Shown here: positions 211-34,567 of the stretch, one piece after another
Layout of the letters: each line of letters begins with the position of its first letter
How positions within the stretch are numbered: the stretch's first letter is position 1
NCBI RefSeq assembly: GCF_003946345.1
Contig: NZ_RHNY01000021.1
Location: forward strand, 1 to 38,562
Direction: 5' to 3'
DNA length: 38,562 nt
Source of the DNA: Levilactobacillus tongjiangensis
Lineage (GTDB): Bacteria; Bacillota; Bacilli; Lactobacillales; Lactobacillaceae
Translations under genes and position numbers: made by a program
The notes under the pieces: model-generated
The model's input: the letters and a program-made list of their open reading frames with translations, nothing else
What the model was told of the DNA's origin: nothing
The model's database searches: none

Positions 211-390
211 CAGCCACCTGCGGCTGTCAGAGATTCCGCCTGCTGTGGGGAACGCCTGCGGCCTGAAAAACGGTCCTCCGGCTCGGTTTGAAGCCTGGAA
301 AAACCACCAGTCTCCAAACACGTCCCACGCTGTAAGCCGAAAATCGGCTAACACCGTCGACACAGCTGGCTCCACCTCTGACCCCCTCCG
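211..390 (-). repeat. Structured intergenic repeat, copy A1
   Basis: First of eight related elements. Read on the minus strand, 226-232 pairs with 376-382 as outer stem. Inside are GTGGG/CCCAC (244-248 with 324-328), a small hairpin (335-340 with 344-349) and a 13-position hairpin (286-298 with 307-319, 12 pairs). The diagnostic loop ACCGTTTTTCAGG is at 262-274. The third hairpin, strong in other copies, is degraded here. No coding signal is visible; the ORFs crossing it are chance frames. Closest relatives are the copies at 19771-19951 and 34384-34567. Confidence 0.75.
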
Positions 391-432
391 GTTAAACGGG
401 TTCTTGGATACTAAACTAGTTTAAATACCTGG

Positions 433-650
433 ATGAAACAGTTACTCAGTAGTATTGGCGCACCACTAGGTAGCCGAGAGTTCGCCAAATTTGGACTCAG
501 CCGTGGGATTTTTAAGTGATTTTCTTGAAAATGGCGACTTGAAGACGTGTTTTCCGGCTTCAAGCGAGGGGCAAGACCGCCTTTAGGCTTGTCCCGTCCT
601 TCCCACCGCGTTCCAGTCCAAATTTGGCGAACGGTAAGGCAACAATTTTT
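433..650 (+). repeat. Structured intergenic repeat, copy B1
   Basis: A perfect 17-bp stem (481-497 with 615-631) encloses three hairpins: 508-516 with 524-532, 538-544 with 558-564, and 568-575 with 588-595 (8 bp, one G-U). The last carries the family loop at 576-587 (ACCGCCTTTAGG). It is about 85-90% identical by eye to the copy at 11510-11715, in the same orientation. It lies just downstream of luxS, antisense to it. Confidence 0.8.
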
Positions 651-651
651 C

Positions 652-689
652 ACTATGCCTGACCCAATCCTTGGTGTGTCAAGCATAGT
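652..689. other. 12-bp hairpin after luxS
   Basis: Positions 652-663 pair with 678-689 over 12 bp with one G-U. It is 37 nt past the luxS stop and could end or stabilise the luxS mRNA. No T-run follows on the minus strand, so it is not a standard intrinsic terminator. Confidence 0.45.
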
Positions 690-725
690 AGGGGGCATTG
701 CTTTCAACCTTTAAGTTTAAATTCG

Positions 726-1199
726 TTAAATAACTTCGCGTTTGAATGGATCCTTAGAAATCCCCTTGTCGAGGATATCCTTGCACCATTCCTGTGCGGA
801 AAACAGACTGTGGTCGCGATAGTTTCCACAACTGTATTTGTCGGTTCCTTGAACGTCTTTCCATTCCGTATCGAAAGCAATTCGGTGAAGAGCTGCTTTC
901 AAAGCTTTAGCAACCTCTTCAGTGGATTGTTCCCCCCAAGTAATCAGGTGGAAGCCGGTCCGGCAACCAAATGGTGAACAGTCAATAACGCCAGACATTT
1001 CATCGCGGAGGTACCCTGCTAAGAGGTGTTCAATCGTATGTAACCCGGCTGTCGGAATCGCGTTTTGGTTCGGTTGAACCAACCGTAAATCAAAGTTAGA
1101 GATAACGTCGCCTTTATTCCCGGTCTCGCGAGTAATCAACCGAACGTAAGGTGCTTTAACAGCTGTGTGATCCAAAGTGAAACTTTCGACTTTTGCCAT
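726..1199 (-). CDS. luxS: S-ribosylhomocysteine lyase LuxS
   Basis: LuxS cleaves S-ribosylhomocysteine to homocysteine and DPD, the precursor of autoinducer-2, in the activated methyl cycle. The 157-residue protein is full length. The metal motif HTIEH is at 54-58 (ligands H54 and H58, catalytic E57), the catalytic cysteine is in SPFGCRTGF (C79), and the third metal ligand is C124 in SCGNYRDH. The ATG at 1199 follows an AAAGGGAG ribosome site. It appears monocistronic, and no other methyl-cycle gene is next to it. Intergenic repeats lie on both sides, with one (1267-1422) just upstream in the same orientation. Confidence 0.97.
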
Positions 1200-1266
1200 T
1201 ATGTGCCAACTCCCTTTTAATTTATCTGTACTTTACCTGCAACTTGGTTAGGGGTCGGTGTCGTGT

Positions 1267-1422
1267 CGCCTTGCCAGGCGGAAAAAATAGGCTGGAACGC
1301 TGTGAACGCGATTTCGAGCCAAAGAGCGGTCTCGAAACTCGGTTCTGCCTAACCGAAGAAAACCACTTCGCTAAGGCAGTGCCCATGGCGTTCCAGCACC
1401 TACAGGCTCGCCCGGTAAGGCG
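1267..1422 (-). repeat. Structured intergenic repeat, copy C1
   Basis: The outer stem is 1267-1280 with 1409-1422 (13 of 14 pairs) and the inner stem 1291-1300 with 1388-1397 is perfect (GCTGGAACGC/GCGTTCCAGC). On the minus strand two hairpins follow: one with CTGCCT/AGGCAG arms and a TGGTTTT loop, the other TTTCGAG/CTCGAAA (1312-1318 with 1331-1337) carrying the family loop at 1319-1330. It sits between divergent luxS and the LCP gene, in the luxS direction, so it could be part of the luxS leader or block its upstream promoter. Confidence 0.8.
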
Positions 1423-1596
1423 CAAATCCAACCGCTGAACAAACTGTAGATACATGTACTTCCTTACTGTAACCAAATTATTAAAAAATTGCCATTATTT
1501 TCTCCGAACGTTAGGTTTCCTTTCCGAATAGATGACAGATCTGCTAAGAAACCGTAAAAACCGATGGCTCTCACCGCCACTCTAGCTACGGGTGGG

Positions 1597-1602
1597 TATA
1601 CT
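1597..1602 (+). promoter_or_regulatory. Possible -10 box for the LCP gene
   Basis: TATACT lies 37 nt before the chosen ATG. No good -35 hexamer is at the right distance, so the call is tentative. Confidence 0.35.
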
Positions 1603-1638
1603 AGATTGCGGATTAAGAGAGTAAGGGGAGGAATCATC

Positions 1639-2634
1639 ATGCAAAATACACCATTACCACCACGCCGAAAGAGCTTTGCTCCACGTCGGCACCATTTACG
1701 CCATTGGCTCATCGCACTGTGTAGTCTACTGGCGATCGGCGGTGGCGTCTACGGTTGGCGCGCTTGGCACGCAGCTCAACAGACATTTTCTGCCACCTAT
1801 CACGCCGTCGGCAAGCCCAATGACACCACCATTACCAGCGGTAAACCGTTTGCCGTACTCCTCTTGGGAACCGACACGGGCGCACTGAGGCGTCACGATG
1901 TTGGTCGTACGGATACCATGATTGTTGCCACTATCAATCCCCAAAAGCAGACCGCTAAACTAACGAGCATCCCCCGTGACACGCTGGTCAACATCTGGGG
2001 AAGCCAACAGGATGAGGAAAAAATCAACGCAGCTTACCCCCTATATGGTGCCCACACCACCATTAAAACGGTGGAGCACCTGGTAAACGTCCCCATTCCC
2101 TATTACGTCCTTCTCAACATGGGCGGTCTAAAAAAAATGATCAACGCGGTGGGCGGCGTGACGGTCGACCCCCTGCTGACCTTTCACTACCAACAGGCTA
2201 ACGTGACTAAGGGCGTTAAGATTCATTTGAATGGTGCCAGCGCCCTGGCCTACTCCCGCATGCGTGATCAGGACCCTCAAGGTGACTACGGTCGCCAAGC
2301 TCGCCAACGTCAAATCATTAAGGCGCTGGTCCTAAAAGAGGCTAGCATCGGGTCCTTGCCACGTTATCAATCCGTTCTAGATTCACTCACCAATAACCTT
2401 CAGACCAACTTGACCTTCCAAGACCTCGTCTGGTTACGCGCCAAGGATGGCCACACCAGCCGCCACATTCAATCACAAACGCTACAGGGACAACCGGAGA
2501 CTATCAACGGTATCGACTACCAAATCGCCCCCCAAGCTGAGATCAACAAAGTTTCTGCCAGCCTACGTCAAGCCTTGAACCTGTCAGATAATTCTAGCTT
2601 TCAAACGGACGCATTGGATCCGGTCGGTTTTTAA
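1639..2634 (+). CDS. LytR-CpsA-Psr (LCP) family cell-wall glycopolymer transferase
   Basis: LCP enzymes attach teichoic acids or other polyprenyl-linked glycopolymers to peptidoglycan outside the membrane. Start ATG 1639 is chosen over an in-frame ATG at 1564 because AGGGGAGG lies just before it; the protein is then 331 residues. A short basic cytoplasmic tail precedes one membrane helix (about 23-40). The LCP domain follows with LLLGTDTG (74-81), GRTDTMI (89-95) and SIPRDT (110-115); the late arginine-rich YSRMRD...YGRQARQ block binds the pyrophosphate. It is a single-gene unit ending at a strong terminator. Which polymer it transfers cannot be told. Confidence 0.93.
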   Translation: MQNTPLPPRRKSFAPRRHHLRHWLIALCSLLAIGGGVYGWRAWHAAQQTFSATYHAVGKPNDTTITSGKPFAVLLLGTDTGALRRHDVGRTDTMIVATINPQKQTAKLTSIPRDTLVNIWGSQQDEEKINAAYPLYGAHTTIKTVEHLVNVPIPYYVLLNMGGLKKMINAVGGVTVDPLLTFHYQQANVTKGVKIHLNGASALAYSRMRDQDPQGDYGRQARQRQIIKALVLKEASIGSLPRYQSVLDSLTNNLQTNLTFQDLVWLRAKDGHTSRHIQSQTLQGQPETINGIDYQIAPQAEINKVSASLRQALNLSDNSSFQTDALDPVGF

Positions 2635-2693
2635 GCTAAACGGCGCTAGTTGCCCTTCGACGTACACATGAGCACTCTAAAGTCAGCGTTAAT

Positions 2694-2725
2694 AAAAGGA
2701 CCTGGAAAAAATTCCAGGTCCTTTT
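2694..2725. terminator. Bidirectional terminator between convergent genes
   Basis: A perfect 14-bp stem, 2694-2707 with 2712-2725, has a 4-nt loop and A/T tails on both sides. It serves the LCP gene (+) and the membrane-protein gene ending at 2767 (-). Confidence 0.93.
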
Positions 2726-2766
2726 GCGTAGTTAATCTAAGAAACCCGATTAGCCCTCCTAGTATT

Positions 2767-3357
2767 CTACGACTCGTCCTGACTTTGCTCATTTTGCCGA
2801 GCAATCCAGATGTGCCAACCAATCACTAAGACACTAACATCCCCGAGAATTGTCCCCAACGCGATCAACCAGCTGCCGGCTGAGGTGACCATCAAACTAG
2901 ATGTCAGTGGGATTCGGGCTAATAGGGCTAGCAACGTCGTAATCCACAGGCTCCCCAGAATAGCCGGGAACCAGGAGTTAGCGTGCCGGCGCTGATGCCA
3001 CCAGGTCAGTCCGGTCACGACCACCGCAAACAGCAGAAGTGTGAGACTCCCACCAAAACGCGTCAAGTAAACCAATCCCATAGCAGGAACGGTGCGGGCC
3101 GCGATCCACATTGCCACCAGCAGGCCAATAATAATGATCAACCAGCCAATGAGACTTCCCCGTGCAGACGCACGTTGTGTCAGCCACAGACCCAAGGCCA
3201 TGGCAATTACGAACAGACCATATTGCACGGCCACTAACAAGAGTTGAAACGGCACTGCTGGCAAAATCACACTCGGTAAAATGGTTCCTAACGTAAAAAT
3301 CAACAGTGGCACCAAAAGATCCCAGCTCCACCATTGGGGCTTCGTTTGTTTGGTCAC
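2767..3357 (-). CDS. Multi-pass membrane protein of unknown function
   Basis: I do not recognise the family. The protein is almost wholly hydrophobic with about six membrane helices, a short polar N-terminus (TKQTKPQWWSWD) and a charged C-terminus (ARQNEQSQDES). The start is taken as GTG 3357, 8 nt after AAGGGAG; an upstream TTG at 3384 overlaps that ribosome site and is unlikely. The length is 196 residues. It lies 78 nt past crcB1 on the same strand with no clear terminator between, so it may be co-transcribed with the FluC pair, but a role in fluoride export is not shown. Confidence 0.75.
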   Translation of the reverse strand: MTKQTKPQWWSWDLLVPLLIFTLGTILPSVILPAVPFQLLLVAVQYGLFVIAMALGLWLTQRASARGSLIGWLIIIIGLLVAMWIAARTVPAMGLVYLTRFGGSLTLLLFAVVVTGLTWWHQRRHANSWFPAILGSLWITTLLALLARIPLTSSLMVTSAGSWLIALGTILGDVSVLVIGWHIWIARQNEQSQDES

Positions 3358-3435
3358 AACGCTTGCTCCCTTCTTTTTCTTCAATATGTTTAATGATAAG
3401 GAAGTTGCGGAGAAAATACCACTGATTTATCGTGC

Positions 3436-3795
3436 TCAGCCATGGATAAGCCCCCACCAGAACCCCACTGCGGCCAGTAAACACCCACCTAAAACACTCA
3501 ACAGTAAGTAACCCAGCACCGCGCCAAAGCGCCGCTGATCAGCCAGCATCACAACTTCATGACTAAAGGTCGAGAAAGTCGTAAACCCGCCGAGAACTCC
3601 GGTCCCCAATGAAATGGCCAGAAGATTGCTAACCTGTAAGCCGGTTAAGCCACCTAATAGCAGGCAGCCCACCCAGTTGATCATTAGGGTGGCCACCGGC
3701 CAATGATTGCCATACCAGCGTTGGACCAACCGAGTTGTCCCATAGCGGCCCAGAGCGCCCACCATGGCACCCACTCCTGCTAGCACCGCCATCAT
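3436..3795 (-). CDS. crcB: Fluoride channel subunit FluC/CrcB (second of pair)
   Basis: FluC proteins are dual-topology fluoride channels that let cytoplasmic F- escape. This 119-residue copy has four helices, the early GR motif (GALGRYGTTR), the helix-2 asparagine (MINWVG) and the helix-3 phenylalanine box GGFTTFSTFS. Its ATG overlaps the stop of the gene before it (ATGATGA), which indicates translational coupling. Gram-positive bacteria often encode two FluC proteins that work together as a heterodimer, and that is likely here. Confidence 0.95.
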   Translation of the reverse strand: MMAVLAGVGAMVGALGRYGTTRLVQRWYGNHWPVATLMINWVGCLLLGGLTGLQVSNLLAISLGTGVLGGFTTFSTFSHEVVMLADQRRFGAVLGYLLLSVLGGCLLAAVGFWWGLIHG

Positions 3796-4184
3796 TCTTC
3801 AACCACCGGAAATGTCCCCCATTTACGGGCGCTCCATAGACCAAACCAGCTACAGAACAGGCCACCCACCAGTGTCACCACCAGGTACCCCGCCGCAAGC
3901 CCCCACTGTTGTTGCTTCAGCAAGCGAATCACATCGACGCTAAAAGTTGAGAAGGTTGTGAAGGCGCCGACACCGCCAACCCCCAACCCAACGGTCACGG
4001 CGCTCGGCCAGTGAGCTGTCACCCGTTTGGCATGCGACAACCAGGACAATCCGCCACTACCCAGCAAGTTAACCAGGACAGTGGCCCACGGAAAACCTGT
4101 AGTCGTCGGCATTCCCTGACCAATCAGGTACCGACCACTGCCACCTAAAAACGCAAAAAATGCAATCGAAACGATGTTTGCCAA
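3792..4184 (-). CDS. crcB: Fluoride channel subunit FluC/CrcB (first of pair)
   Basis: This is a 130-residue FluC protein with the same landmarks as its neighbour: GGSGRYLIG, helix-2 asparagine (LVNLLGS) and the box GAFTTFSTFS. The start is TTG 4184, with AAGGAGG 8 nt upstream. A TATAAT on the minus strand (4215-4220) lies close by, so the leader is only about 25 nt. That is too short for a fluoride riboswitch, and none is visible. The partner gene overlaps by 4 nt. Confidence 0.94.
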   Translation of the reverse strand: MANIVSIAFFAFLGGSGRYLIGQGMPTTTGFPWATVLVNLLGSGGLSWLSHAKRVTAHWPSAVTVGLGVGGVGAFTTFSTFSVDVIRLLKQQQWGLAAGYLVVTLVGGLFCSWFGLWSARKWGTFPVVEE

Positions 4185-4214
4185 GCCGTTGGCCTCCTTG
4201 TAAATACTTCGCCC

Positions 4215-4220
4215 ATTATA
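4215..4220 (-). promoter_or_regulatory. -10 box of the crcB pair
   Basis: TATAAT on the minus strand lies 30 nt before the TTG start. The expected -35 position falls inside the preceding terminator and is a poor match. Confidence 0.45.
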
Positions 4221-4222
4221 GC

Positions 4223-4246
4223 AAAAAAGGCCGCCCCACGGCGACC
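4223..4246 (-). terminator. Terminator after the trxA-cstR operon
   Basis: GGCCGCC (4229-4235) pairs with GGCGACC (4240-4246), one G-U, followed on the minus strand by six T. It separates the cstR-like gene from the crcB pair. Confidence 0.8.
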
Positions 4247-4258
4247 CTCCTTCACGTT

Positions 4259-4522
4259 CTAATGTGTTTTAACCACGAGGTCTAATGCGTCTTGGAGCGC
4301 AGCCTGTTGATTATCACTGAGTTCTTCCTCAACGATACACTGCTTAACGTTCTCTGCGACGACCACGCCCATCATGCGTTCCACCCCGGAACGAACGGCA
4401 GCCAATTGCGTCAGAATATCCTGACACTCCCGCCCCTCGTCGACCATCTTCAGAATACCCTGGAGTTGGCCATCAGCGCGCCGCAAGCGATTCTTCAATT
4501 GGTTAGAGGTTGTTTGTACCAT
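4259..4522 (-). CDS. CsoR-family repressor, CstR-like (persulfide-type sensor)
   Basis: This 87-residue all-helical DUF156 protein belongs to the CsoR/RcnR/CstR family of tetrameric repressors. The two conserved cysteines are present (C33, C62). The Cu(I)-ligand histidine of CsoR, four residues before the second cysteine, is asparagine here (N58). A Cys pair without that His is the pattern of CstR, which senses per- and polysulfides by cross-linking the two thiols. Its ATG overlaps the trxA stop (TAATG), so it is coupled to a thioredoxin and not to a copper pump, which supports thiol or sulfur stress. A G-rich/C-rich palindrome at 4886-4901 is its probable operator. Confidence 0.85.
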   Translation of the reverse strand: MVQTTSNQLKNRLRRADGQLQGILKMVDEGRECQDILTQLAAVRSGVERMMGVVVAENVKQCIVEEELSDNQQAALQDALDLVVKTH

Positions 4523-4848
4523 TAGGCTTTCACCTCAGTCAGCTTCTCGTCAAGATACTTCTTCAGAGCGGCCTTGGGATGGAATCCCACCACTTTTTCA
4601 GTTGGCATTCCATTCTTAAAGACGACCATAGAAGGAATGCTCATGATTCCTAACGACTGTGCCAGTTCCTGGTTCTGGTCGACATCTAAGGAGGCAAACT
4701 TGACCTGGTCGCCATATTCTTGATCCAAGGCTTCCAAGACCGGCGTCTGCATCTTACATGGGCCACACCAATCGGCCCAAAAGTCGACAACGGTTACCGC
4801 GGTATCGTCGCCCACGTGTTCAAAGTCCTTACTCGTAATTGCTTGCAT
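4522..4848 (-). CDS. trxA: Thioredoxin
   Basis: This small cytoplasmic disulfide reductase has the WCGPC active site (C28, C31) and the cis-proline loop SIPSMV. Start ATG 4848 gives 108 residues and follows a GGGGGA ribosome site; a longer in-frame start at 4875 lies inside the leader. It is the first gene of a two-gene operon, and the cstR-like gene begins within its stop codon. The promoter -10 (TATACT, 4883-4888) overlaps the operator, so expression should rise when the repressor is oxidised. Confidence 0.96.
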   Translation of the reverse strand: MQAITSKDFEHVGDDTAVTVVDFWADWCGPCKMQTPVLEALDQEYGDQVKFASLDVDQNQELAQSLGIMSIPSMVVFKNGMPTEKVVGFHPKAALKKYLDEKLTEVKA

Positions 4849-4885
4849 GAAAGAATCCCCCTTATGTTTTATCAATGTAGCTAGT

Positions 4886-4901
4886 ATACCCCAAGGGGTA
4901 T
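4886..4901. promoter_or_regulatory. CsoR/CstR-type operator over the trxA promoter
   Basis: ATACCCCAAGGGGTAT is a perfect inverted repeat around a 2-nt centre, the form known for CsoR/CstR operators. The minus-strand -10 TATACT (4883-4888) overlaps its edge, which places the operator between -35 and -10. Confidence 0.85.
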
Positions 4902-4991
4902 TAAAAAGCGAGACTTTTGTTTTCAGTTAGTCTCCTAGCCACGTGTGAGAACCGGCTACGATCCCCTAACAAGGCCCAGCGAACAGACCAC

Positions 4992-5026
4992 AAAAAAACG
5001 AGGTGCGACCTTCGTCTCACCCCGTT
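4992..5026 (-). terminator. Terminator of the NADH oxidase gene
   Basis: AACGAGGTG (4997-5005) pairs with CACCCCGTT (5018-5026), and an inner GAC/GTC pair extends it. Seven T follow on the minus strand. Confidence 0.85.
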
Positions 5027-5045
5027 TTCAATTCATGTATTTAAC

Positions 5046-6452
5046 TTAATCTTCAGGAAGTTCAGGATCTGGATCCATCCCAGCGGTCAACCGCGGATTG
5101 TTGTTTCCCCGCTTAGTTTCCTTCTCGACAGCCTGTTGGGCCACAAGGTTCAGGAAGTTAAACGGATCATCAAAGTTCGGGTTAAATAGCATGTCCACAA
5201 AAGCCAGGTCATCAATCGTGTTCCGGTTTTGGATAGCGATTGAAATGGCGTTAGCTGATTGCGCAACTTCATGCTTACTGAGGAACTGAGCTCCAAGAAT
5301 CCGTCGATTCTTCCGGTTGTAGACCAAGTTGATGGTCAAATCATCCGTTGATGGCATGTAGCTTGGCCGCCAAGTCCCTTGGAAAGTGACCTGATCAGCA
5401 TCAAAGCCCGCTGCCAGTGCATGGTCGATGGTTAACCCAGTTGAGGCCAACGTCCGACCAAAAATCTGCATTGCAGAGGTGGCTTGCGTTCCCATGTACT
5501 TCTGAATGTTACCAAAGACATTGATACCAGCAAGCATCCCTTGCCGAACCGCGTTAGTTGCCAGTGGTGTGTACGCTGGCTTCCCCGTTGGGTTGAAGTT
5601 AACGACGCTGGCATCCCCACAGGCAAAAATGTCTGGGTTAGACGTCTGAACGTAGTCGTTAATGATAATAGCCCCGTGCTTGTCCATATCCACTTGCCCC
5701 CGTAAGAGCTCCGTGTTAGGTACAAATCCGGTACATACAACGGCAAGGTCAGCCGTAAATTCACCATTCGTCGTTTCAATGACTAATTCACCGTCCTCAT
5801 TCCCAGTGAAGGACGTTACTCGCCGGTTCAACAGCACTTTTACGCCGTTATCCTGCAGTAAATGAACAATGTGATCAGACAATTCGCTATCAACGTAGTG
5901 GTTCAAAATAATGTCTCGTGATTGAATCAGTTGAACATCGTGACCCGTCCGCGCGTAACTTTCAGCCAGTTCCGTGCCAATATAACCGGCACCAATGATT
6001 GCAATTCGCTTGTTACCCTTAGCTGCGGCATCAATTGCCACGGCTTGTTCGTAGTTTTTGCAAAGCATGACCTTGTCTTCATCGATCCCAAAGATCGGTG
6101 GCACGGTCACAGTGGATCCAGTTGCCATAATTAATTTATCGTAAGTATCAGTGGTCAAATCGCCAGAATCCATATCAACGACATCGAGTGACTTATTTTC
6201 TGAATCGATCTTAACGACGTTGTGCCGCGTTAAAACCTTAGCACCCGCTTCCGCTAGTTGTTCTGGTGAAGAATAAAACATGTCCTCCAAGTGCTTGACT
6301 TGTCCGTCTAAGAACAGAGAGATACCACAAGACAAGAACGAAACATTCGTATGTCGCTCGTAAATGGTCACATCTGTATCTGGATGGTCACGCAAAATTT
6401 GTAGCGCGGCGTTAGTGCCAGCGTGTGTACTCCCAACAATGATGACTTTCAT
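5046..6452 (-). CDS. nox: FAD-dependent NADH oxidase / CoA-disulfide-reductase-family oxidoreductase
   Basis: The family couples NADH oxidation to reduction of O2 to water, peroxide or a (per)sulfide, using FAD and one redox cysteine. Start ATG 6452 (468 residues) follows GTAGGAGGG; an ATG at 6485 lies upstream of that site. Visible are the N-terminal FAD fold (VIIVGSTHAGTNAA), the redox cysteine in SFLSCGISLF (C42), the NAD fold (IIGAGYIGTELAE) and the second FAD motif IFACGDAS. A water-forming Nox is the best guess. Because the next operon carries a CstR-like regulator, a CoA-persulfide reductase is the main alternative. A terminator separates the two units. Confidence 0.88.
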   Translation of the reverse strand: MKVIIVGSTHAGTNAALQILRDHPDTDVTIYERHTNVSFLSCGISLFLDGQVKHLEDMFYSSPEQLAEAGAKVLTRHNVVKIDSENKSLDVVDMDSGDLTTDTYDKLIMATGSTVTVPPIFGIDEDKVMLCKNYEQAVAIDAAAKGNKRIAIIGAGYIGTELAESYARTGHDVQLIQSRDIILNHYVDSELSDHIVHLLQDNGVKVLLNRRVTSFTGNEDGELVIETTNGEFTADLAVVCTGFVPNTELLRGQVDMDKHGAIIINDYVQTSNPDIFACGDASVVNFNPTGKPAYTPLATNAVRQGMLAGINVFGNIQKYMGTQATSAMQIFGRTLASTGLTIDHALAAGFDADQVTFQGTWRPSYMPSTDDLTINLVYNRKNRRILGAQFLSKHEVAQSANAISIAIQNRNTIDDLAFVDMLFNPNFDDPFNFLNLVAQQAVEKETKRGNNNPRLTAGMDPDPELPED

Positions 6453-7104: not shown

Positions 7105-7116
7105 TGTTGTCTAATT

Positions 7117-8495: not shown

Positions 8496-8500
8496 TGGCA

Positions 8501-11458: not shown

Positions 11459-11496
11459 CTAAAGGTTGAAAGTTCGAAAACCGTTATCAAACCAAG
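11459..11496 (+). repeat. Short repeat box shared with 144-180
   Basis: About 31 of 37 positions match 144-180 by eye, and TAAACTAGTTT at 11441-11451 matches 412-422. Here both boxes directly precede copy B2. Confidence 0.6.
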
Positions 11497-11509
11497 AATA
11501 GTAAAGCAC

Positions 11510-11715
11510 TTACTCAGTAGTATTAGCACGCCACTAGGTAGCCGAGAGTGAGTCAAATTTGGACTCAGCCGTGGAATTTTCAAGTGCTCTTCTTGAAAAT
11601 GGAGACTTGAAGACGTGTTTTTCGGCTTCAAGCGAGGGGCAAGACCGCCCTTTGGCTTGTCCCGTCCTTTCCACCGCGTTCCAGTCCAAATTTGGCGAAC
11701 GGTCAGGCGGTAATT
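11510..11715 (+). repeat. Structured intergenic repeat, copy B2
   Basis: Near-identical sister of the copy at 433-650. The outer stem is 11554-11565 with 11683-11694 (12 bp). The first hairpin (ATTTTCAAG/CTTGAAAAT) is perfect here where B1 has a G-U, a pairing-preserving change. The family loop ACCGCCCTTTGG is at 11644-11655. It ends about 90 nt before the GNAT gene and could lie in that gene's leader. Confidence 0.8.
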
Positions 11716-11805
11716 TCCCACCGTTCTCAGCCTATAAGCGTTTTGACTTTCCCGGAAAGAACAGGTATAACGAAATTATACTTATAAAAACCTGAGGTGG
11801 ATTTC

Positions 11806-12363: not shown

Positions 12364-12540
12364 AAAAAGGTCTGAGACTTTTGTCTCAAACCCTTTTTGT
12401 GCTCCAAACGTAAACAGTCGAAACGTGCGACAAAGGGCAGTCAACTCCGCTTAACCCCGATAAACAAACAATCCAAGACCGGGATTATTCGTCTATCGAC
12501 GTTAATGCTCATTGACTAACCGCCTTTAGTCCCACTCTCA
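12364..12540 (+). repeat. Hairpin-led repeat family D, copy D1 (interrupted)
   Basis: A terminator hairpin (TGAGAC/GTCTCA, 12373-12388, A-run before and T-run after) is followed by GTGCTCCAAACGTAAA, AGTCGAAACGTG and GGCAGTCAACTCCGC. This matches 27725-27830. About 69 nt of unrelated sequence (12451-12519) then interrupts the element before its final part (CCGCCTTTAGTCCCACTCTC). The hairpin also serves as terminator for the GNAT gene. Confidence 0.7.
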
Positions 12541-18054: not shown

Positions 18055-18332
18055 AATTTAACGACCCCTTTTCTAATAAAGTTCTCCCCGATCACAGTTA
18101 GTCCGATACGTTCAGGTTAGCTAAAACGGTTACATTTAACTAGCCACCACTACTCCCCCCAAACGGAACCAGTAGGTGATCTAACTGTCAGGGATGATTT
18201 GTCTCTATTATACGGCTTATCAGGCGAAAAACCAGTTGAAAGCTATCGTAATCTACTTCACAAACAAGTGTACACAATTAAATCGTTACTAAGTCAATGA
18301 TTGCATGGTGTTTAGATTGGCCGCCTTACCGG

Positions 18333-18465
18333 GTGAGCTGGTAGGTGCTGGAACGCCATGGGTACGGTTTTGAGCCAAAGACCGGTCTCAAAAGCCGACC
18401 TTTCACTAATCTGAGAAGACCACTCAGCTAAGAGAAATTTCATGGCTGAGCACCTACCAGCTCAC
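18333..18465 (-). repeat. Structured intergenic repeat, copy C2
   Basis: A perfect 17-bp outer stem, 18333-18349 with 18449-18465, and an inner GCCAT/ATGGC (18355-18359 with 18442-18446). Hairpins are TTTTGAG/CTCAAAA (18368-18374 with 18387-18393) and CTGAG/CTCAG (18411-18415 with 18423-18427). The family loop, on the minus strand, is at 18375-18386. It forms an inverted pair with C3, about 110 nt away. Confidence 0.78.
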
Positions 18466-18555
18466 CCTCTCGGCTAATGCAGATACACCACTGCAACAAT
18501 CATATGTTCTAAAAACTTAGCAAACTAACTTGAATAACGAACCTCCATTAATAGA

Positions 18556-18720
18556 CAAGCAGTCTCAGCCGAGAGGGCGAGGGAAATATGCTCAGCCGTG
18601 GCACTGCCTTAGCGAAGTGGTTTTCTTCGGTTAGGCAGAACCGAGTTTCGAGACCGCTCTTTGGCTCGAAATCGCATTCACAGCGTTCCAACCTATTTTT
18701 CCCGCCCGGCAAGGCGTCAA
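18556..18720 (+). repeat. Structured intergenic repeat, copy C3
   Basis: Outer stem 18575-18588 with 18694-18707 (13 of 14 pairs). Hairpins are 18604-18617 with 18625-18638 and TTTCGAG/CTCGAAA (18646-18652 with 18665-18671), with the family loop at 18653-18664. The central part is nearly identical to C1 (1267-1422) in the opposite orientation. Its left end (AGCCGAGAGGG) is the reverse complement of the right end of C2. Confidence 0.8.
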
Positions 18721-19597: not shown

Positions 19598-19770
19598 GTA
19601 TATTACCAAGGCATACTTAAGCATAATTTATTGTGCACAATTGATATCATTAAAGTATGCTAAAATAAGCTGAGTAAGCGCTACGCGACAACCTAAACAC
19701 ATCCCTCACCTAACCAGCGACTACGACCCGCTGCCAATCATTCTGTTTAGCTTGTCATCGTCGTTGTAGT

Positions 19771-19951
19771 CGCCGGGTGCTAGGGTGGAGCTGGCTGTGT
19801 CGACGGTGTTGGTCAGCGTCTTTCAGCTGACCTACAGCGTGGGACGAGCTTAGAGACTCTCGTGAACTTCGGGAGGCTCTAAGTCGAGGTGCAAGACCGC
19901 CTCTCAGGCTTGCACCGTTCCCCACAGCAGGCTCCACCCTGGCAGCCGGCG
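19771..19951 (+). repeat. Structured intergenic repeat, copy A2
   Basis: The outer stem of 21 positions (19771-19791 with 19931-19951) has one mismatch and one G-U. Inside are GGTCAGC/GCTGACC (19811-19817 with 19826-19832), GTGGG/CCCAC, CTTAGAG/CTCTAAG (19849-19855 with 19877-19883) and a perfect 8-bp GGTGCAAG/CTTGCACC (19888-19895 with 19909-19916) bearing the family loop at 19896-19908. It is the best-formed copy. Confidence 0.85.
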
Positions 19952-19972
19952 GCGGACACTTAAGCACCAAAC

Positions 19973-23045: not shown

Positions 23046-23125
23046 ATCAGGGCCTGAGACAAAAGTCTCAAGCCCTGGTTGTGCCCCGACCGTAAATAAT
23101 CGGAACGGGGAACAAATATTGACAG
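23046..23125 (+). repeat. Hairpin-led repeat family D, copy D2
   Basis: A hairpin GGGC-TGAGAC/GTCTCA-GCCC is followed by GTGCCCCGACCGTAAATAAT and CGGAACGGGGAACAA, matching the other D copies at about 75-80% by eye. In D2 CCCCG pairs with CGGGG; the 3' part has diverged. Confidence 0.65.
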
Positions 23126-27616: not shown

Positions 27617-27724
27617 TCCTTTAGTAACCAGCATTCAGGTTCACCCCCGCTGTGAGGGACCCAACGACTGACTTTAACCAATTTATGCCAACCCAGCCCT
27701 CCCCATAAGAAGCATTCGCAGCGT

Positions 27725-27830
27725 AAAAAAGGGTTTGAGACAAAAGTCTCAAACCCTTTTTGTGCTCCGAACGTAAATAGTCGAAACGTGGGACAACAGG
27801 CAGTCAACTCCGCCTTTTGTCCCACTCTCT
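27725..27830 (+). repeat. Hairpin-led repeat family D, copy D3
   Basis: The most complete copy. A perfect 11-bp hairpin (27731-27741 with 27746-27756) flanked by A and T runs is followed by GTGCTCCGAACGTAAATAGT, then a second hairpin GTGGGACAA/TTGTCCCAC with an inner GGC...GCC. The first hairpin can act as a terminator on either strand, including for corA. The ORF across it (27583-27924, minus) is a chance frame. Confidence 0.75.
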
Positions 27831-27854
27831 GTAAAACCTGAATCGGTTTTACAG
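27829..27854. other. Hairpin after corA
   Basis: CTGTAAAACC (27829-27838) pairs exactly with 27845-27854. It lies 75 nt past the corA stop; no clear T-run follows. Confidence 0.45.
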
Positions 27855-27928
27855 AGCTAATCTTAGTATGTTTAGTTGCTATTTTATAGGAACAGCCGAC
27901 TCTGCCCGCACAACATAAAACCACGTCT

Positions 27929-28846: not shown

Positions 28847-28949
28847 TGGGGAATCCCCCTTCTCTCATTAAACAATTGCTTTAAGTGTACCACGAGCGAC
28901 GGGGAAATTCTTCAAGATTATCCGAACGATGACCAACCGACGTACTTGA

Positions 28950-29702: not shown

Positions 29703-29774
29703 GCTGATGATCTCCCTCGTAATTTTAATTTACCATATCTGGTAGTTATCTCGCCGGCGAGGGGTGATTTAAAT

Positions 29775-29786
29775 ACAATATATTGT
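29775..29786. promoter_or_regulatory. 12-nt palindrome upstream of pnuC
   Basis: ACAATATATTGT is an exact palindrome 73 nt before the pnuC ATG. It could be an operator; AT-rich chance is a real alternative. Confidence 0.3.
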
Positions 29787-29977
29787 GGTGCTCGTTTTGA
29801 GCAACAGATTTGATTATAGCACTTTCATTTTGCCCTGCGGGACCCGTTTTATAATTTGTTTCATGCAATTTATCCTGGATTTAAGCGATTACATTCCCGC
29901 AGATTCGGCTGTGAAACAGTCTTTTTACTGAGATGATTATCCTCACACATTGCTCTGGTTGGGGTAAAATGTTCAAA

Positions 29978-30007
29978 ATAAAAAAGATTAGTCGAGTACG
30001 ACTAATC
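29978..30007. terminator. Terminator of the second MarR gene
   Basis: GATTAGTCG (29986-29994) pairs perfectly with 29999-30007, with A/T tails on both sides; on the minus strand it closes the MarR gene ending at 30031. Confidence 0.9.
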
Positions 30008-30030
30008 CTTTTAGCAAAAATATTTAAGTA

Positions 30031-30510
30031 TTATTCTTCAGCCTCTGCTGGATCCTCTTTGCTAGTAACGGCCGCCAACATTTGCGTCAACTGCCCCACC
30101 GTCAAGGCACTTCCATTATTGTCCAGCTGAACACCACTCATGGTCTTAGCGGCTTCCCGCAGCGCATCTAAACAGGTGATTTCAAGCTGTTCACCATTAG
30201 ACGTCAATGACAACGGCCGGACTCGCCGGTCAGAACTTTGATAACTTTGCACGACATAACCCCGCCGAATCAACTGAGAAATTCCCTGTGATACCGCGGC
30301 CCGTGAAATCCCCCGACTATCCGCCACAGTAGCGGACGTCAGCTTGCCTGGATTCTCTAAAATATGGTGCAAAATTGCGTACTGGTCCACCGAGATCCCC
30401 ATGGTCCGTTGGAAGCGCGTAGCTGCCTTTTCTAATTCTCTTTTCAACTCCATGAAAGACTCAAAGAAGCTTTCTGCATGTACGACCTTACTCTTTACCA
30501 TAGTATTCAT
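30031..30510 (-). CDS. MarR-family transcriptional regulator
   Basis: A 159-residue winged-helix regulator. The DNA-binding part is SATVADSRGISRAAVSQGISQLIRRGYVVQSYQSSDRRVRPLSLTSNG (about 57-105), flanked by helical dimer arms; it ends in an acidic tail (KEDPAEAEE). The start is one of ATG 30513, 30510 or 30501; 30510 is 4 nt from AAGGA. It stands alone with no divergent or downstream partner, so its target is unknown. It is not close in sequence to the MarR at 25096-25536. Confidence 0.88.
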   Translation of the reverse strand: MNTMVKSKVVHAESFFESFMELKRELEKAATRFQRTMGISVDQYAILHHILENPGKLTSATVADSRGISRAAVSQGISQLIRRGYVVQSYQSSDRRVRPLSLTSNGEQLEITCLDALREAAKTMSGVQLDNNGSALTVGQLTQMLAAVTSKEDPAEAEE

Positions 30511-30668
30511 CATATCCTTATCTTCACTTACTAACCCTGAATATAATTAACATGATTAGCAATACGCAAAATGGTTGACCCCATAGAAATATCTATATAA
30601 TTAATAATAAAGAACAACCTTACAAAAATCAAGCACTATTCGCTGATTTGTAAAAAAGTTTACGGTAT

Positions 30669-30700
30669 AAAAAAGGAACCGAAGATTTGTTCTCGGCCCC
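30669..30700 (-). terminator. Terminator of the GH13 gene
   Basis: GGAACCGA (30675-30682) pairs with TCGGCCCC (30693-30700), two G-U, followed on the minus strand by six T. Confidence 0.82.
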
Positions 30701-30707
30701 ATACGTT

Positions 30708-32345
30708 TCATTCTAACTTTCGTAGGTGGTAGAGTCGGGCTTCCCACGGCTGAATCTGTGGCTCATCGGAGTCCGCATCCACAGCCATATTGGTCAAAAT
30801 CAACTCACTGGTGTTCAGGTCAAACTCCTGTGTCGTCGCAATCTGATTACTCATGTTGACGACTACCAACCAGTTATCGCCATTCAGAGTCCGCCGATAA
30901 ACGTACAGCTGATCATCCTGAGTATCAATCAGCTCGTAGCGCCCCGTTGTCAGGGTCGGAACGGATTTCTTCAGTCGAATTAACTGCTGGTAGAAGTTTA
31001 AAACACCATGTGGGTCGTGCCGTTCCTGTTCCACGTTTAAGCCACCCGACCCCAATCCCATATCAATCCAAGGGGCGTGGTCGGAGAAGCCACCATACTG
31101 CGCGTGCGTCCAAGATATGGGGGTCCGGGCATTGTCCCGGCTCTTCATGGCTAAGTTTTGAAGAACCGTTGACGACGGCACCCCGGCAGCCGTCTGCTGC
31201 TGGTAGAACAGCCGACTGTCTAAATCCCGGTACTGACTTGCTTGGGTGAACGCAGCGTTGGCCATCCCTAGTTCCTGTCCCTGATAAATGAAGGGAGTCC
31301 CCTTCATCAGGAAGTACCAGAGCGCCAAGGCTTTGGCGGAACGCCACTGGTAGTCCGTGGCGTTGCCGTAGTATGAAACAGCACGAGGTAAATCATGATT
31401 TTCAATGAACAAGGCGTTCCAACCGATACCCTCTAGACCAAGCTGCCACTTCGACAGGGTCTCGCGTAACGCGGCAACTGGAAGCTTGGGTTCAGCCTTT
31501 TCCCAGAAATGCACATGATCAAATTCCAAAAGTAAGTCGAAGTATCCCGTCTGTGGGTTCAACCAGCGTTGGGCGGTCGCCATATCAATCCCGCCGGCTT
31601 CCCCAATGACGAAGGCGTTATTTCGTTGTAGCACGGGCTTTAAAGCAGAAAGGAAGGCGTCCGTTCCGGCAACATCTCCTGTGTAACCGGTCCGTGGGCG
31701 ACCAACATTGGCAAAATCTTGCCGCTTCTTCAGATGCATGACACCATCTAACCGAAAACCGTCAACACCACGGTCCGCCCACCATTGGATGGTGGCGCCC
31801 ATTTCTTGACGAACGGCCGGATTTTCCCAATTTAAGTCAGGTTGCCCTTCAGCAAACGTGTGGAGGTATGCCGCCTGTGCTTCGGCGCTGTACGTCCACG
31901 CAGAACCGCCAAAGACGGATTCCCAATTGTTGGGCGCAACACCTGGCTGGGTATCTCGCCAAATGTAGTAATCGTGATAGGGACTGGTGACATCCGTCAA
32001 AGCTGCTTGGAACCAGGGATGCTGGCTGGACGTGTGATTCAGCGCCAAGTCGATAACCACTTTGATATCAGCAGCGTGAAAAGCCTCAACCAAACGAGTA
32101 AAATCGTTGATGGTTCCGAATTGGGGGGCAACAGCCCGGTAATCCGTCACGTCGTAGCCATTATCCACGTCACCAGATGGGTAAAATGAGGACAACCAGA
32201 CAAAATCAACACCCAGTTCCCTTAGGTAGTCGATTTTTGTTTGGATGCCGGGAAGGTCGCCCACCCCATCGTGGTTACTATCAAAAAAACTTTGCGGGTA
32301 AATCTGGTACCCTACCGCGTGTTGCCACCATTGTGCGTCAGCCAT
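30708..32345 (-). CDS. GH13 alpha-glucosidase / oligo-1,6-glucosidase
   Basis: A cytoplasmic 545-residue glycoside hydrolase of family 13, probably subfamily 31, cutting alpha-1,6 or alpha-1,4 glucosidic bonds in small oligosaccharides. Conserved regions: DLALNHTS (99-106), GFRLDGVMHL with nucleophile D200, GEAGG with acid/base E249 and ENHDLPR with D318. The N-terminal QIYPQSF...DGVGDLPGI is typical. No signal peptide, so the sugar must be imported. The ATG at 32345 follows GAAAGGAAG. A perfect cre site upstream indicates repression by CcpA in glucose. It is monocistronic, without a transporter next to it. Confidence 0.94.
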   Translation of the reverse strand: MADAQWWQHAVGYQIYPQSFFDSNHDGVGDLPGIQTKIDYLRELGVDFVWLSSFYPSGDVDNGYDVTDYRAVAPQFGTINDFTRLVEAFHAADIKVVIDLALNHTSSQHPWFQAALTDVTSPYHDYYIWRDTQPGVAPNNWESVFGGSAWTYSAEAQAAYLHTFAEGQPDLNWENPAVRQEMGATIQWWADRGVDGFRLDGVMHLKKRQDFANVGRPRTGYTGDVAGTDAFLSALKPVLQRNNAFVIGEAGGIDMATAQRWLNPQTGYFDLLLEFDHVHFWEKAEPKLPVAALRETLSKWQLGLEGIGWNALFIENHDLPRAVSYYGNATDYQWRSAKALALWYFLMKGTPFIYQGQELGMANAAFTQASQYRDLDSRLFYQQQTAAGVPSSTVLQNLAMKSRDNARTPISWTHAQYGGFSDHAPWIDMGLGSGGLNVEQERHDPHGVLNFYQQLIRLKKSVPTLTTGRYELIDTQDDQLYVYRRTLNGDNWLVVVNMSNQIATTQEFDLNTSELILTNMAVDADSDEPQIQPWEARLYHLRKLE

Positions 32346-32403
32346 TCCCGTCTTCCTTTCGTTGCTCGTTCTGCAACCGGTTGTCCCTCTTCATATTCGG
32401 GGA

Positions 32404-32419
32404 TTGCATTCGCTTACAA
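32404..32419 (-). promoter_or_regulatory. cre (CcpA) site upstream of the GH13 gene
   Basis: TTGTAAGCGAATGCAA on the minus strand fits the CcpA consensus WTGNAANCGNWNNCAW at every fixed position. It is about 60 nt before the start codon, at or near the promoter, as expected for catabolite repression. Confidence 0.85.
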
Positions 32420-32605
32420 TTGTAACAATAATTATCTTATTTGTCGGCCGATTTGGCAAATTTATTGCTCACAACTAATTGAGAAGTTAAATATTACGAC
32501 CATTATTAATTGCGGTGAGCGCTGATAATGCGGTAGCAATTGACCAAAATATATTTCTGAAGAGTAGTTGCTAGCTCACGCTTTAGTCAACCCACAAATA
32601 TAAAA

Positions 32606-32634
32606 GGCTAGCAGAAATCAGTCTACTAGCCTAG
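32606..32634 (-). terminator. Second terminator after the FAD lactate dehydrogenase gene
   Basis: AGGCTAGCAG and CTACTAGCCT pair with one mismatch, followed on the minus strand by TTTTA. Confidence 0.6.
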
Positions 32635-32685
32635 AGATAAAATCCCATCAAAATTGTATTAATATTAACGAAACAGTTACCGGAG

Positions 32686-32707
32686 AAAAGCAGGATTTCT
32701 ATCCTGC
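32686..32707 (-). terminator. Terminator of the FAD lactate dehydrogenase gene
   Basis: GCAGGAT (32690-32696) pairs perfectly with ATCCTGC (32701-32707), with TTTT following on the minus strand. Confidence 0.75.
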
Positions 32708-32735
32708 CTTTCGTCGGCCCACACCATTCGCAAGT

Positions 32736-34130
32736 TTAATCGATTTTACGCTTAGGGTTTAAGAGGTTCATTGGGTCGAACAATGTCTTGACCTGGTGCT
32801 GTAACATATCCACAGTTTCACCAAGTTCAGGATTGTTCCACTGGTTCTTCAACATCCCCACGGCATGTTCACCGGAAATAGTGCCACCCAGTTCCAACGT
32901 CTTCCAGAAGGTCTGCCGTAAGGCCTCAATAACCACTTCAGGAACCTCGTCTTCGTCCTTGGACCAAGTAAAGGTTGGGTGCACGTTCCCGTCACCAGCG
33001 TGACCGGCCGTGTAGATCTTAATTCCCAACTTCTTGCCCAATTCCTGAAGATAATCCATCATTGGCGCCAGCTTAGACAGCGGCATTGCCATATCTTCCA
33101 TCAAGTGATTGTTGCCGGAGAAGACGGCTGGTAACATATCCTGCCGGAGCTTTTCCAGAGCAGCCTGTTCGTCAGGATCGGTCGTCACCTGAACGTGTTG
33201 CCCATTGTACTTAGCCAGCAAATCGTTCAGAACACCAACGCTTTCGTCACTGCTACCATCCAACCGGAAAATTAACATGGAGCCACTATTTTCAGCGTAA
33301 TGTGTGCCTTCGAAGCGGTCCAGCGCGATAACCGTATTTCCATCTAGGGCTTCCAGCATCGTTGGGTAAACCCCCGACATCCGAATGGCTGAAACACCCT
33401 TTGCCAAGGCACTCATGTCATCGAAGAAGGCCACTCCCATGACAGACTTGCCCAGTGGAATTGGCATTAGCTTAACTGTGACTTCAAAAACGATTCCTAA
33501 GGTCCCTTCAGATCCCACGAAGAGTTGCGTCAGGTCATACCCGAAAGCCTGTTTCAACGTCCGGCCACCAAGTTTCACAACGCGACCATCTGCTAAGACG
33601 GCTTTCAAGCCTAAAACGTTGTCCTTAGTTGCACCAAACCGCACAGTACTCATCCCACCAGCATTGGTTGAAACGTTCCCACCGATAGATGAAAATGGCT
33701 TAGAGCCTGGATCTGGTGCGTAGAACAAGCCCTCTTTACGAGCAGCCTTATCCAAATCACCGTTAACGACCCCGGGTTGAACAACAGCCACGGAATCTTC
33801 CTTGCTGAGTTCCAGAATCTGGTTCATCTTACGCGTCGACAGAATGATGGCCCCATCGATTCCGTCAGAGCCAATCACCGTGCTACTAAATGTCGTTTGT
33901 GGAATGACCGCAATGTGAAATTTTCGAGCTGCCCGTAAGACACCCTGAATGTCCTCAACACTGGCAACTTCCACAAATGCCCGTGCCAGTCCAGTCTCTC
34001 CACCCGAGGCGTTGGGGTTGAAGGATTGCTTCTTCAACGTTGCCTCGTCGGTGTGAACCGTTCCGTCCTTGACCTGGTCTTGGAGGTAACTCAAAATATC
34101 TTCGTCAGAGTATGCACTAAATACTGTCAT
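32736..34130 (-). CDS. FAD-linked D-lactate dehydrogenase / glycolate-oxidase-like (GlcD family)
   Basis: A 464-residue flavoenzyme oxidising a D-2-hydroxy acid, most likely D-lactate, to pyruvate with a quinone or other acceptor. The FAD (PCMH) domain has VVQPGVVNGDLDKAA, the PDPGS and GGNVSTNAGG loops and GSEGTLGIV; the C-terminal substrate domain has HAGDGNVHP (His-rich, metal or lactate site) and GTISGEHAVG. The ATG at 34130 follows GAAGG. It is single-gene. With Pox, Ndh and Nox it fits aerobic use of lactate, although glycolate is a possible substrate. Confidence 0.92.
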   Translation of the reverse strand: MTVFSAYSDEDILSYLQDQVKDGTVHTDEATLKKQSFNPNASGGETGLARAFVEVASVEDIQGVLRAARKFHIAVIPQTTFSSTVIGSDGIDGAIILSTRKMNQILELSKEDSVAVVQPGVVNGDLDKAARKEGLFYAPDPGSKPFSSIGGNVSTNAGGMSTVRFGATKDNVLGLKAVLADGRVVKLGGRTLKQAFGYDLTQLFVGSEGTLGIVFEVTVKLMPIPLGKSVMGVAFFDDMSALAKGVSAIRMSGVYPTMLEALDGNTVIALDRFEGTHYAENSGSMLIFRLDGSSDESVGVLNDLLAKYNGQHVQVTTDPDEQAALEKLRQDMLPAVFSGNNHLMEDMAMPLSKLAPMMDYLQELGKKLGIKIYTAGHAGDGNVHPTFTWSKDEDEVPEVVIEALRQTFWKTLELGGTISGEHAVGMLKNQWNNPELGETVDMLQHQVKTLFDPMNLLNPKRKID

Positions 34131-34383
34131 GGTACCGGCCTTCTTTTCTCAAAATTAAGTTTGCACGATCAGTGTAACACGTAATTTTTAAAAGTACAGG
34201 CTAAGTACTTTCAATCCGCGAGTCCGAACCAACTGGAGCGACCATTTTATCCAACTCTGGCTGCACTGATTTCATTGTGAATAATAAATAACATTGAAAG
34301 ATACACTATCTAAGCTCAACCAACCCCGATAGGACCCAACGACTGACACAGTCACGCCCATTCTATAGCCACCGGCCAACGGC

Positions 34384-34567
34384 GCCTCTGGCTGGCAGAG
34401 ATGGGGTCGGCTGTGTCGGTGGTCTTAGCTCGATGATTTTATCGAGGTTAGAACACGGGACGAGCTTGGAAACTCGGTGGTTTTCCGAGGTTTCAAGTCG
34501 AGGAGTAAGACCGCCCTTTGGCTTGCTCCGGTCCCCACAGCAGTCGCCGTCCCTGCCAGCCAGAGGC
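34384..34567 (+). repeat. Structured intergenic repeat, copy A3
   Basis: A perfect 15-bp outer stem, 34384-34398 with 34553-34567, quite unlike the outer stem of A2. Inside are CTCGAT/ATCGAG, a 13-position hairpin CTTGGAAACTCGG/CCGAGGTTTCAAG with 12 pairs and a TGGTTTT loop, and GGAGTAAG/CTTGCTCC (8 bp) bearing the family loop at 34510-34521. The ORF at 34433-34630 across it is a chance frame. Confidence 0.82.

What the first reader, a model, noticed from the sequence alone, without database searches (positions are those of the whole stretch)
211..34567. Eight-copy family of structured intergenic elements with a constant loop
Elements at 211-390(-), 433-650(+), 1267-1422(-), 11510-11715(+), 18333-18465(-), 18556-18720(+), 19771-19951(+) and 34384-34567(+) share one plan: a long outer stem, then two or three hairpins, the last with loop ACCGCYCTTTGG (262-274, 576-587, 1319-1330, 11644-11655, 18375-18386, 18653-18664, 19896-19908, 34510-34521). 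Three sequence subtypes (A, B, C) keep this plan. No transposase or ORF belongs to them. Eight copies in 38 kb implies hundreds per genome. They could be a structured RNA family, a MITE-like element moved in trans, or both.
Basis: seen in the sequence. Interest (0 to 1): 0.88.

Follow-up and report, generated by a model that had tools for sequence, protein, structure and literature searches.

The report
Paired structured mobile repeats in Levilactobacillus
The eight look-alike folded sequences in this stretch of a food-fermentation bacterium belong to a large, apparently undescribed family of gene-less mobile DNA whose copies mostly sit in head-to-head pairs and whose folded shape evolution has preserved; what moves them, and whether they are also made as RNA, is unknown.

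Summary
A covariance model built from A-type copies finds all eight copies full length (E 6e-37 to 4e-5). Of its 45 pairs, 38 show compensatory change, far above shuffled and slid controls; a cross-genus two-hairpin set shows 39 of 44. The own genome has at least 150 copies. 33 of 35 Levilactobacillus genomes and 12 of 295 Lactobacillales (5 genera of one family) are positive. No Rfam family matches.

New: copies are mostly arms of divergent pairs (94 of 117 neighbours). Of 21 further such units, all holding arms, 10 have exact 7/8-bp duplications, none in shuffles. G.T outnumbers A.C 249 to 41: the folded form is one strand, reading outward. No promoter is enriched. IS110 bridge RNA and REP/RAYT memberships were tested and not met.

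Best reading: a REPIN-like, non-autonomous paired element with ornate arms; driver unknown.

The parts
136..143 (.). left target-site duplication (ggttaaat)
   Evidence: 7 of 8 identical to 715-722; single copy in the empty site of relative G050
144..157 (+). left terminal inverted repeat of the composite unit (CTAAAGATTTAAAG; consensus CTAAAGGTTGAAAG)
   Evidence: 2 mismatches to the consensus
214..394 (-).
   Evidence: nhmmer; R1 226-382(-) E 1e-33
463..653 (+).
   Evidence: nhmmer; R1 484-628(+) E 4.3e-12
701..714 (-). right terminal inverted repeat (TTAAAGGTTGAAAG on the minus strand)
   Evidence: 1 mismatch
715..722 (.). right target-site duplication (gtttaaat)
1265..1424 (-). C-type arm in the luxS leader; chimera of two arms, best read as a deletion inside a pair
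   Evidence: G050 keeps both arms (its 1654-1811(-) and 1860-2013(+)), yonginensis keeps one
11459..11472 (+). left terminal inverted repeat of a shortened unit without A arm; no right repeat found
   Evidence: exact match
11531..11721 (+). B-type arm
   Evidence: nhmmer; R1 11552-11696(+) E 6.8e-11
18320..18477 (-). C-type arm, left member of a divergent pair
   Evidence: nhmmer; R1 18340-18458(-) E 1.3e-8
18565..18718 (+). C-type arm, right member of the pair; in G050 the middle is deleted and the 3' end remains
   Evidence: R1 18581-18703(+) E 3.7e-7
19766..19955 (+). A-type arm, solo; in G050 only end remnants remain
   Evidence: R1 19778-19944(+) E 1.1e-32
34384..34568 (+). A-type arm; solo here, with a weak minus-strand partner match in G050
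   Evidence: R1 34394-34557(+) E 6.1e-37

Best explanation
The copies are arms of a high-copy, non-autonomous mobile repeat of Levilactobacillus and related lactobacilli. The usual unit is a pair of 130-190-nt arms lying head to head, 5' ends inward, around a variable spacer. SHOWN: the arms keep a long outer stem, conserved internal-loop motifs and two or three hairpins by compensatory change, on the strand that reads outward from the pair. SHOWN for a subset: whole units bounded by inverted repeats CTRAAGGTTGAAAG inserted with 7-8-bp target duplications, which is what a transposase acting in trans leaves. INFERRED: the paired folded arms are what a mobilising protein recognises in single-stranded form, as REP pairs (REPINs) are thought to be recognised by their transposase. 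INFERRED: solo and chimeric copies arise by deletion within pairs. The mobilising enzyme is not identified.
For: Covariation: 38 of 45 pairs in A type, score 0.556 against 0.193 shuffled and at most 0.098 slid; 39 of 44 in the cross-genus two-hairpin set. Strand: G.T 249 against A.C 41 over 37 pairs and 122 distinct copies; without the two pairs that hold most G.T it is 125 against 41. Pairing: 94 (-,+), 12 (-,-), 9 (+,+), 2 (+,-) of 117 distinct neighbours within 700 bp; 104 of 128 own-genome arms have a divergent partner; 10 of 10 loci with two matches on opposite strands are (-,+), 6 of them from other genera. Mobility: empty site in G050; 10 of 21 inverted-repeat units have exact 7/8-bp duplications and 13 are within one mismatch, shuffled mean 0.000 and 0.242; all 21 contain at least one arm match. 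The luxS region carries copies at different places in different species.
Against: Most A/A and C/C pairs show no inverted repeats of this kind: 22 of 93 pairs had any 12-bp flank repeat, and shuffled flanks gave 7 to 20. How these pairs move is therefore not shown. No autonomous element was found in the loci at hand. Neither transposase family tested tracks the elements. G.T excess fits RNA as well as single-stranded DNA. Two further G050 sites that looked empty turned out to be deletion remnants.
Confidence: 0.62

Rival explanations
1. A family of small structured RNAs (trans-acting or cis-regulatory), spread by hitchhiking on transposons; the RNA is the functional product.
For: Compensatory change and G.T excess on one strand; conserved motifs CTCAG and GTTCCAG in copies of five genera; some copies lie in leaders, such as luxS.
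Against: No sigma-70-like promoter enrichment in the 120-base 5' flanks: best -35/-10 score 7.87 against 7.84 shuffled for 136 A copies, 7.72 against 7.61 for 40 B, 7.88 against 7.81 for 48 C. No fixed orientation to neighbours: 43/40/37/13 of 133. Position at luxS is not conserved. A pair would need two divergent transcripts.
Confidence: 0.22
2. The arms are bridge/seek RNAs of IS110-family insertion sequences.
For: In genus g26 arms lie between the end of an IS110 transposase remnant and an IS-like right end CTTGACTAATCGTAGGAA (by eye in five copies). The remnant is borne out by search beside arms in three places there (G246:C2, G246:C15, G308:C12) and in G005; Pfam PF02371 matches the L253 piece (E 6.4e-22) but not the 64-residue L247 piece.
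Against: Of the 30 loci of the closest IS110 relatives, R1 (E <= 0.001) hits 3: two of the remnant type and one (L286) where the IS sits inside an arm. In a first set of 28 IS110 loci 5 have an arm within reach (L253, L255, L260, L267, L272), but of five equal-scoring copies in G003 only two do, at different places and orientations. PF02371 is absent from 21 of 34 genomes, 20 of them R1-positive. Pairing and inverted repeats are not IS110 features.
Confidence: 0.05
3. REP/REPIN elements moved by a RAYT (Y1) transposase.
For: High copy, intergenic, paired inverted, solo remnants: the same population pattern as described for REPINs (PMC3116915, passages read).
Against: PF01797 is absent from 11 of 34 genomes searched, all 11 R1-positive, and 28 of 30 Y1 loci have no arm nearby. 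The GTAG tag is in 41 of 120 A and 1 of 47 C starts. Arms are 130-190 nt, not 20-40.
Confidence: 0.08
4. A long-repeat foldback MITE in which only the inverted repetition matters and the internal hairpins have no role.
For: A pair as a whole folds into one giant hairpin; terminal repeats and duplications exist.
Against: Partners are often different subtypes (AB, BA, AC, CA: 50 of 94 pairs), while arms keep their own hairpins by compensatory change, and G.T exceeds A.C.
Confidence: 0.03

Closest known systems
REP/REPIN elements (PMC3116915, PMC3733652, passages read)
   Same: High-copy intergenic non-coding palindromes, mostly inverted pairs with spacer, solo remnants, single-strand hairpins, frequent G.T pairs
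   Different: Arms several times longer with 2-3 hairpins and conserved internal loops; no dependable GTAG tag; no RAYT needed; a subset has terminal inverted repeats with 7-8-bp duplications; in lactobacilli
Bacterial MITEs
   Same: Terminal inverted repeats, target duplications, no ORF, moved in trans (21 units)
   Different: Hold structure-conserved arms, often in pairs, and most A/A and C/C pairs lie outside any recognised inverted repeats
IS110/IS1111 bridge or seek RNA (PMC11208160, PMC11187229, passages read)
   Same: Structured non-coding sequence in a mobile element; physical linkage in g26 and G005
   Different: Closest intact IS110 copies lack it; paired inverted architecture; target duplications
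Rfam lactobacillus RNAs and HEARO
   Same: Multi-stem structured sequences in lactobacilli (from memory)
   Different: No Rfam 15 family matches the eight copies up to E 5, nor the arms in 19 loci of other genera up to E 1

Membership tests
MITE | terminal inverted repeats with target-site duplication | tested here: met
   Met for a subset only: 21 units, 10 exact 7/8-bp duplications, 13 within one mismatch, all 21 with an arm inside; window unit 144-714 with empty site in G050
MITE | all copies bounded by such repeats | tested here: not met
   most A/A and C/C pairs have none
MITE | autonomous partner with the same ends | tested here: inconclusive
   none in fetched loci; only one 878-bp repeat pair above 800 bp, in L103; whole genomes were not scanned for it
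REP/REPIN | inverted pairs as usual arrangement | tested here: met
   94 of 117 neighbours
REP/REPIN | GTAG tag at one end | tested here: not met
   41 of 120 A, 1 of 47 C; the B count (3 of 31) is not valid because the B profile starts too early
REP/REPIN | short arm of 20-40 bp | tested here: not met
   arms 130-190 nt; 20-40 bp from the PMC3733652 abstract
REP/REPIN | RAYT/Y1 transposase in the genome | tested here: not met
   PF01797 absent from 11 of 34 genomes, all 11 R1-positive
IS110 bridge RNA | structured RNA in the non-coding end of intact IS110 copies | tested here: not met
   R1 hits 3 of 30 loci and 5 of 28, none an intact IS with a constant arm of its own
Known Rfam family | score above gathering threshold | tested here: not met
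   0 matches in the window; only a T-box passed its threshold, outside the arm
Structured RNA | covariation supporting one fold | tested here: met
Structured RNA | transcription of the folded strand | not testable with these tools
   no RNA-seq; promoter test negative

The most novel reading that the evidence does not exclude
A new transposition system in lactobacilli in which each end of the element carries an ornate folded nucleic acid (RNA or single-stranded DNA) read outward from the centre, and a still unknown enzyme uses the two folded ends in trans. The internal-loop motifs (CTCAG, GTTCCAG, CGAGCTT..AAGTCG) would be its recognition or guide code, and the population (at least 150 copies here) would be kept alive by it, as RAYTs keep REPINs.
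Probability: 0.22. Interest if true: 0.88.

Novelty: new variant of a known kind. Interest (0 to 1): 0.72.

Why it matters
REP-like populations with the GTAG tag are described from Proteobacteria, Cyanobacteria, Chloroflexi and the PVC group (PMC3733652, passage) and are tied to RAYT transposases. Here a paired repeat with far more elaborate arms has reached at least 150 copies in one lactobacillus genome and at least 83, the scoring cap, in 20 of 35 genomes of the genus, with no known driver. It makes a testable case of structure, not sequence, being the unit that a mobile element preserves. It inserts between promoter and gene (luxS), so it can alter leaders of food-related bacteria.

Tried and rejected
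IS110 as driver: looked strong in genus g26, where arms follow a transposase remnant, but closest intact relatives carry no arm of their own and 20 R1-positive genomes lack the family. Y1/RAYT as driver: absent from 11 R1-positive genomes, not linked. Cis-regulatory or sRNA gene: no promoter signal, no fixed orientation. Plasmid or phage vector: no blastn match for A, B or C in plasmids, nor for A in phages (B and C were not searched in phages, and the tool says near records may be left out). G050 sites for the 18565 and 19766 copies first looked empty, but alignment shows deletion remnants, so they are not counted as empty sites. A first duplication test in an 8-bp register alone, with looser repeats, gave a weak signal (mean match 2.76 against 2.27, 5 of 34 at 7 or more); allowing 7 bp and stricter repeats gave the clear result, so that test was refined after seeing the data. 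The flank-repeat test for all pairs was not clearly above its control, because the control itself contains the shared repeat.

Literature: searches (65 was on IS110) showed no description of this family in their listings; they cover openly licensed PMC papers only. The 2017 survey of candidate structured RNAs that names Lacto motifs (recalled) is not held, so earlier description there is not excluded. PMC3733652 main text does not contain words beginning Lactobacillus or Firmicutes; PMC2267715 mentions only L. johnsonii among lactobacilli; PMC2864571 was searched for passages only.
Full report
WHAT WAS CHECKED. The window lies in a 2.72-Mb genome of 43 contigs. LuxS at 726-1199(-) (PF02664) is 99% identical to that of L. 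yonginensis, and the nearest named records are Levilactobacillus. No Rfam family reaches its threshold in the window, and nothing overlaps the arms up to E 5. In one search a T-box passed its threshold and a cspA leader came close, outside the arms, so the scan works.

THE COPIES. Sequence searches in the own genome gave 43 matches for the A copy at 34384, 14 for the C copy at 18556 and 40 for the B copy at 11505; searches scored only 40 candidates, so they are floors. An alignment of 50 A-type copies from the own and related genomes gave a fold of 45 pairs, 38 with changes on both sides. Counted on that structure, 96.5% of cells pair (shuffled 77.1%) and the covariation score is 0.556 (shuffled 0.193; partners slid by 1-3 columns at most 0.098). 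The structure came from the same alignment, so the slid control leans its way; the size of the gap is the point. Model R1 built from A copies alone finds the B and C copies too, full length, so the three subtypes share one plan. A second alignment of 30 two-hairpin copies from five genera (19 Levilactobacillus, 11 from g20, g21, g22, g26) has 39 of 44 pairs with double changes. Its conserved letters lie mainly in CTCAG, GTTCCAG and CGAGCTT..AAGTCG and in the stem of the last hairpin, not in the last loop. The 'constant loop' is exact in 4 of 8 window copies.

WHICH STRAND. Over 122 distinct, nearly full A copies aligned by sequence profile, without structure, the 37 consensus pairs hold 4024 Watson-Crick, 249 G.T, 41 A.C and 84 other cells. 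Two pairs give 124 of the 249 G.T; without them it is 125 against 41. A double-stranded or two-strand cruciform role would give no such excess. The folded strand is therefore the plus strand of each arm. RNA and single-stranded DNA both allow G.T, so this does not choose between them.

PAIRS. Among 117 distinct neighbouring arms within 700 bp, 94 are (-,+), 12 (-,-), 9 (+,+) and 2 (+,-) (an earlier redundant count gave 82, 16, 8 and 2 of 108). Of 128 own-genome arms with enough flank, 104 have a divergent partner. The 10 loci with two matches on opposite strands, 6 of them from other genera, are all (-,+). Partners are often different subtypes. In the window the pairs are 214-394/463-653 and 18320-18477/18565-18718. 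The copy at 1265-1424 is what remains of a pair: relative G050 has both arms there, L. yonginensis one, and the window a chimera.

MOBILITY. Most aligned B copies sit in a unit of about 570-615 bp: inverted repeat CTAAAGGTTGAAAG, reversed A arm, B arm, inverted repeat. In the window it spans 144-714 with duplications ggttaaat/gtttaaat, and the near relative G050 has the uninterrupted site CTTAAGTTTAAAT. Across the loci, 21 units with good inverted repeats were found (the window's own, with weaker repeats, is not among them); 10 have exact 7- or 8-bp direct repeats in register and 13 are within one mismatch; 2000 shuffles of the flanks gave none exact and a mean of 0.242 within one mismatch. 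All 21 hold at least one arm match. An earlier version of the test with looser repeats and 8 bp only was weak. One such unit, without duplication, lies in Companilactobacillus (L152). Outside these units the ends are not settled: most A/A and C/C pairs show no comparable repeats. Around luxS, copies lie in the leader in some species, upstream of the promoter in others, and are absent from the stretch shown in others. At one intergenic site three genomes carry different arms in different orientations and L. brevis ATCC 14869 has none.

DISTRIBUTION. By blastn with one A copy only 16 of 40 genomes (own included) were positive, all in the genus, so sequence search undercounts. In an even draw of 295 Lactobacillales genomes 12 are positive in 5 of 74 genera, all in one family (strict filters, 9 candidates scored per genome, so a floor). 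Among 80 named luxS loci, 18 of 27 Levilactobacillus-like and 4 of 53 others hold an arm by profile search.

NEIGHBOURS AND PROMOTERS. For 133 own arms with genes on both sides the orientations are 43/40/37/13, with divergent gene pairs rarest; the 3' end is nearer to a gene than the 5' end in 118 of 133. Genes were mechanical ORFs of 110 or more residues, so this is rough. Promoter-like hexamer pairs are not enriched in the 120-base 5' flanks of A (136), B (40) or C (48) copies.

WHAT MOVES THEM. In g26 several arms follow an IS110 transposase remnant and precede an IS-like right end. But of 30 loci of the closest IS110 relatives only 3 have an arm match (E <= 0.001): two of the same remnant type, and one (L286) where the IS has landed inside an arm between its second and third hairpin, with both halves and the outer stem still readable. 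Of 28 loci in the first IS110 set 5 have an arm in reach; of five equal-scoring IS copies in G003 two do, at different places. PF02371 occurs in 13 of 34 genomes; 20 of the 21 without it are R1-positive. So IS110 copies use arms as targets or carry them as passengers. PF01797 occurs in 23 of 34 and is missing from 11, all R1-positive; 2 of 30 such loci have an arm nearby. Neither family tracks the arms. The target duplications suggest a DDE-type transposase for the bounded subset (established knowledge), not yet seen.

BEST READING. A REPIN-like paired element with ornate arms, moved in trans. Shown: fold, strand, pairing, insertion of the bounded subset. Inferred: that the paired folds are the recognised ends, and that solo copies are deletion products (window and G050 cases support this). 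Unknown: the enzyme, the movement of unbounded pairs, and transcription.

NOVELTY. No Rfam match and no description in the listings of eight searches of openly licensed papers, but the main candidate survey is not held. It works like a REPIN without being one (tag, size and transposase tests not met), and like a MITE for a subset. I rate it a new variant of a known kind, with a real chance of a new transposition system.

Noticed in passing
window 12364-12450, 23049-23115, 27727-27813: A second three-copy repeat family (73-87% alike) with a GAGAC..GTCTC hairpin and a shared tail like GAACGTAAATAGTCGAAACGTG; not part of the arms.
   Followed up: no
L286 (G622) 1280-3100, minus strand: An IS110-family copy inserted inside an arm, between its second and third hairpin, both halves still present: arms serve as IS110 targets, as REPs do elsewhere.
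   Followed up: yes
L278-L291, downstream of IS110 transposases: A set of IS110 relatives end with TTGACTAATCGTAGGAA; some of these ends abut a terminator-like hairpin (for example GGGGCTGTGACA..TGTCACAGCCCC in L281), suggesting terminator-targeted insertion.
   Followed up: no
L180, L182, L190, L188 (one intergenic site): One intergenic site is filled with different arms in three genomes and empty in L. brevis ATCC 14869 (L188): a possible insertion hot spot.
   Followed up: partly
L100 (L. namurensis) spacer between arms near 330-555: The spacer of a C/C pair reads like a decayed IS110 transposase end, similar to g26 units (seen by eye).
   Followed up: partly
window 1265-1500: The luxS leader carries a remnant arm pair between promoter and ribosome site; it may alter luxS expression.
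   Followed up: no
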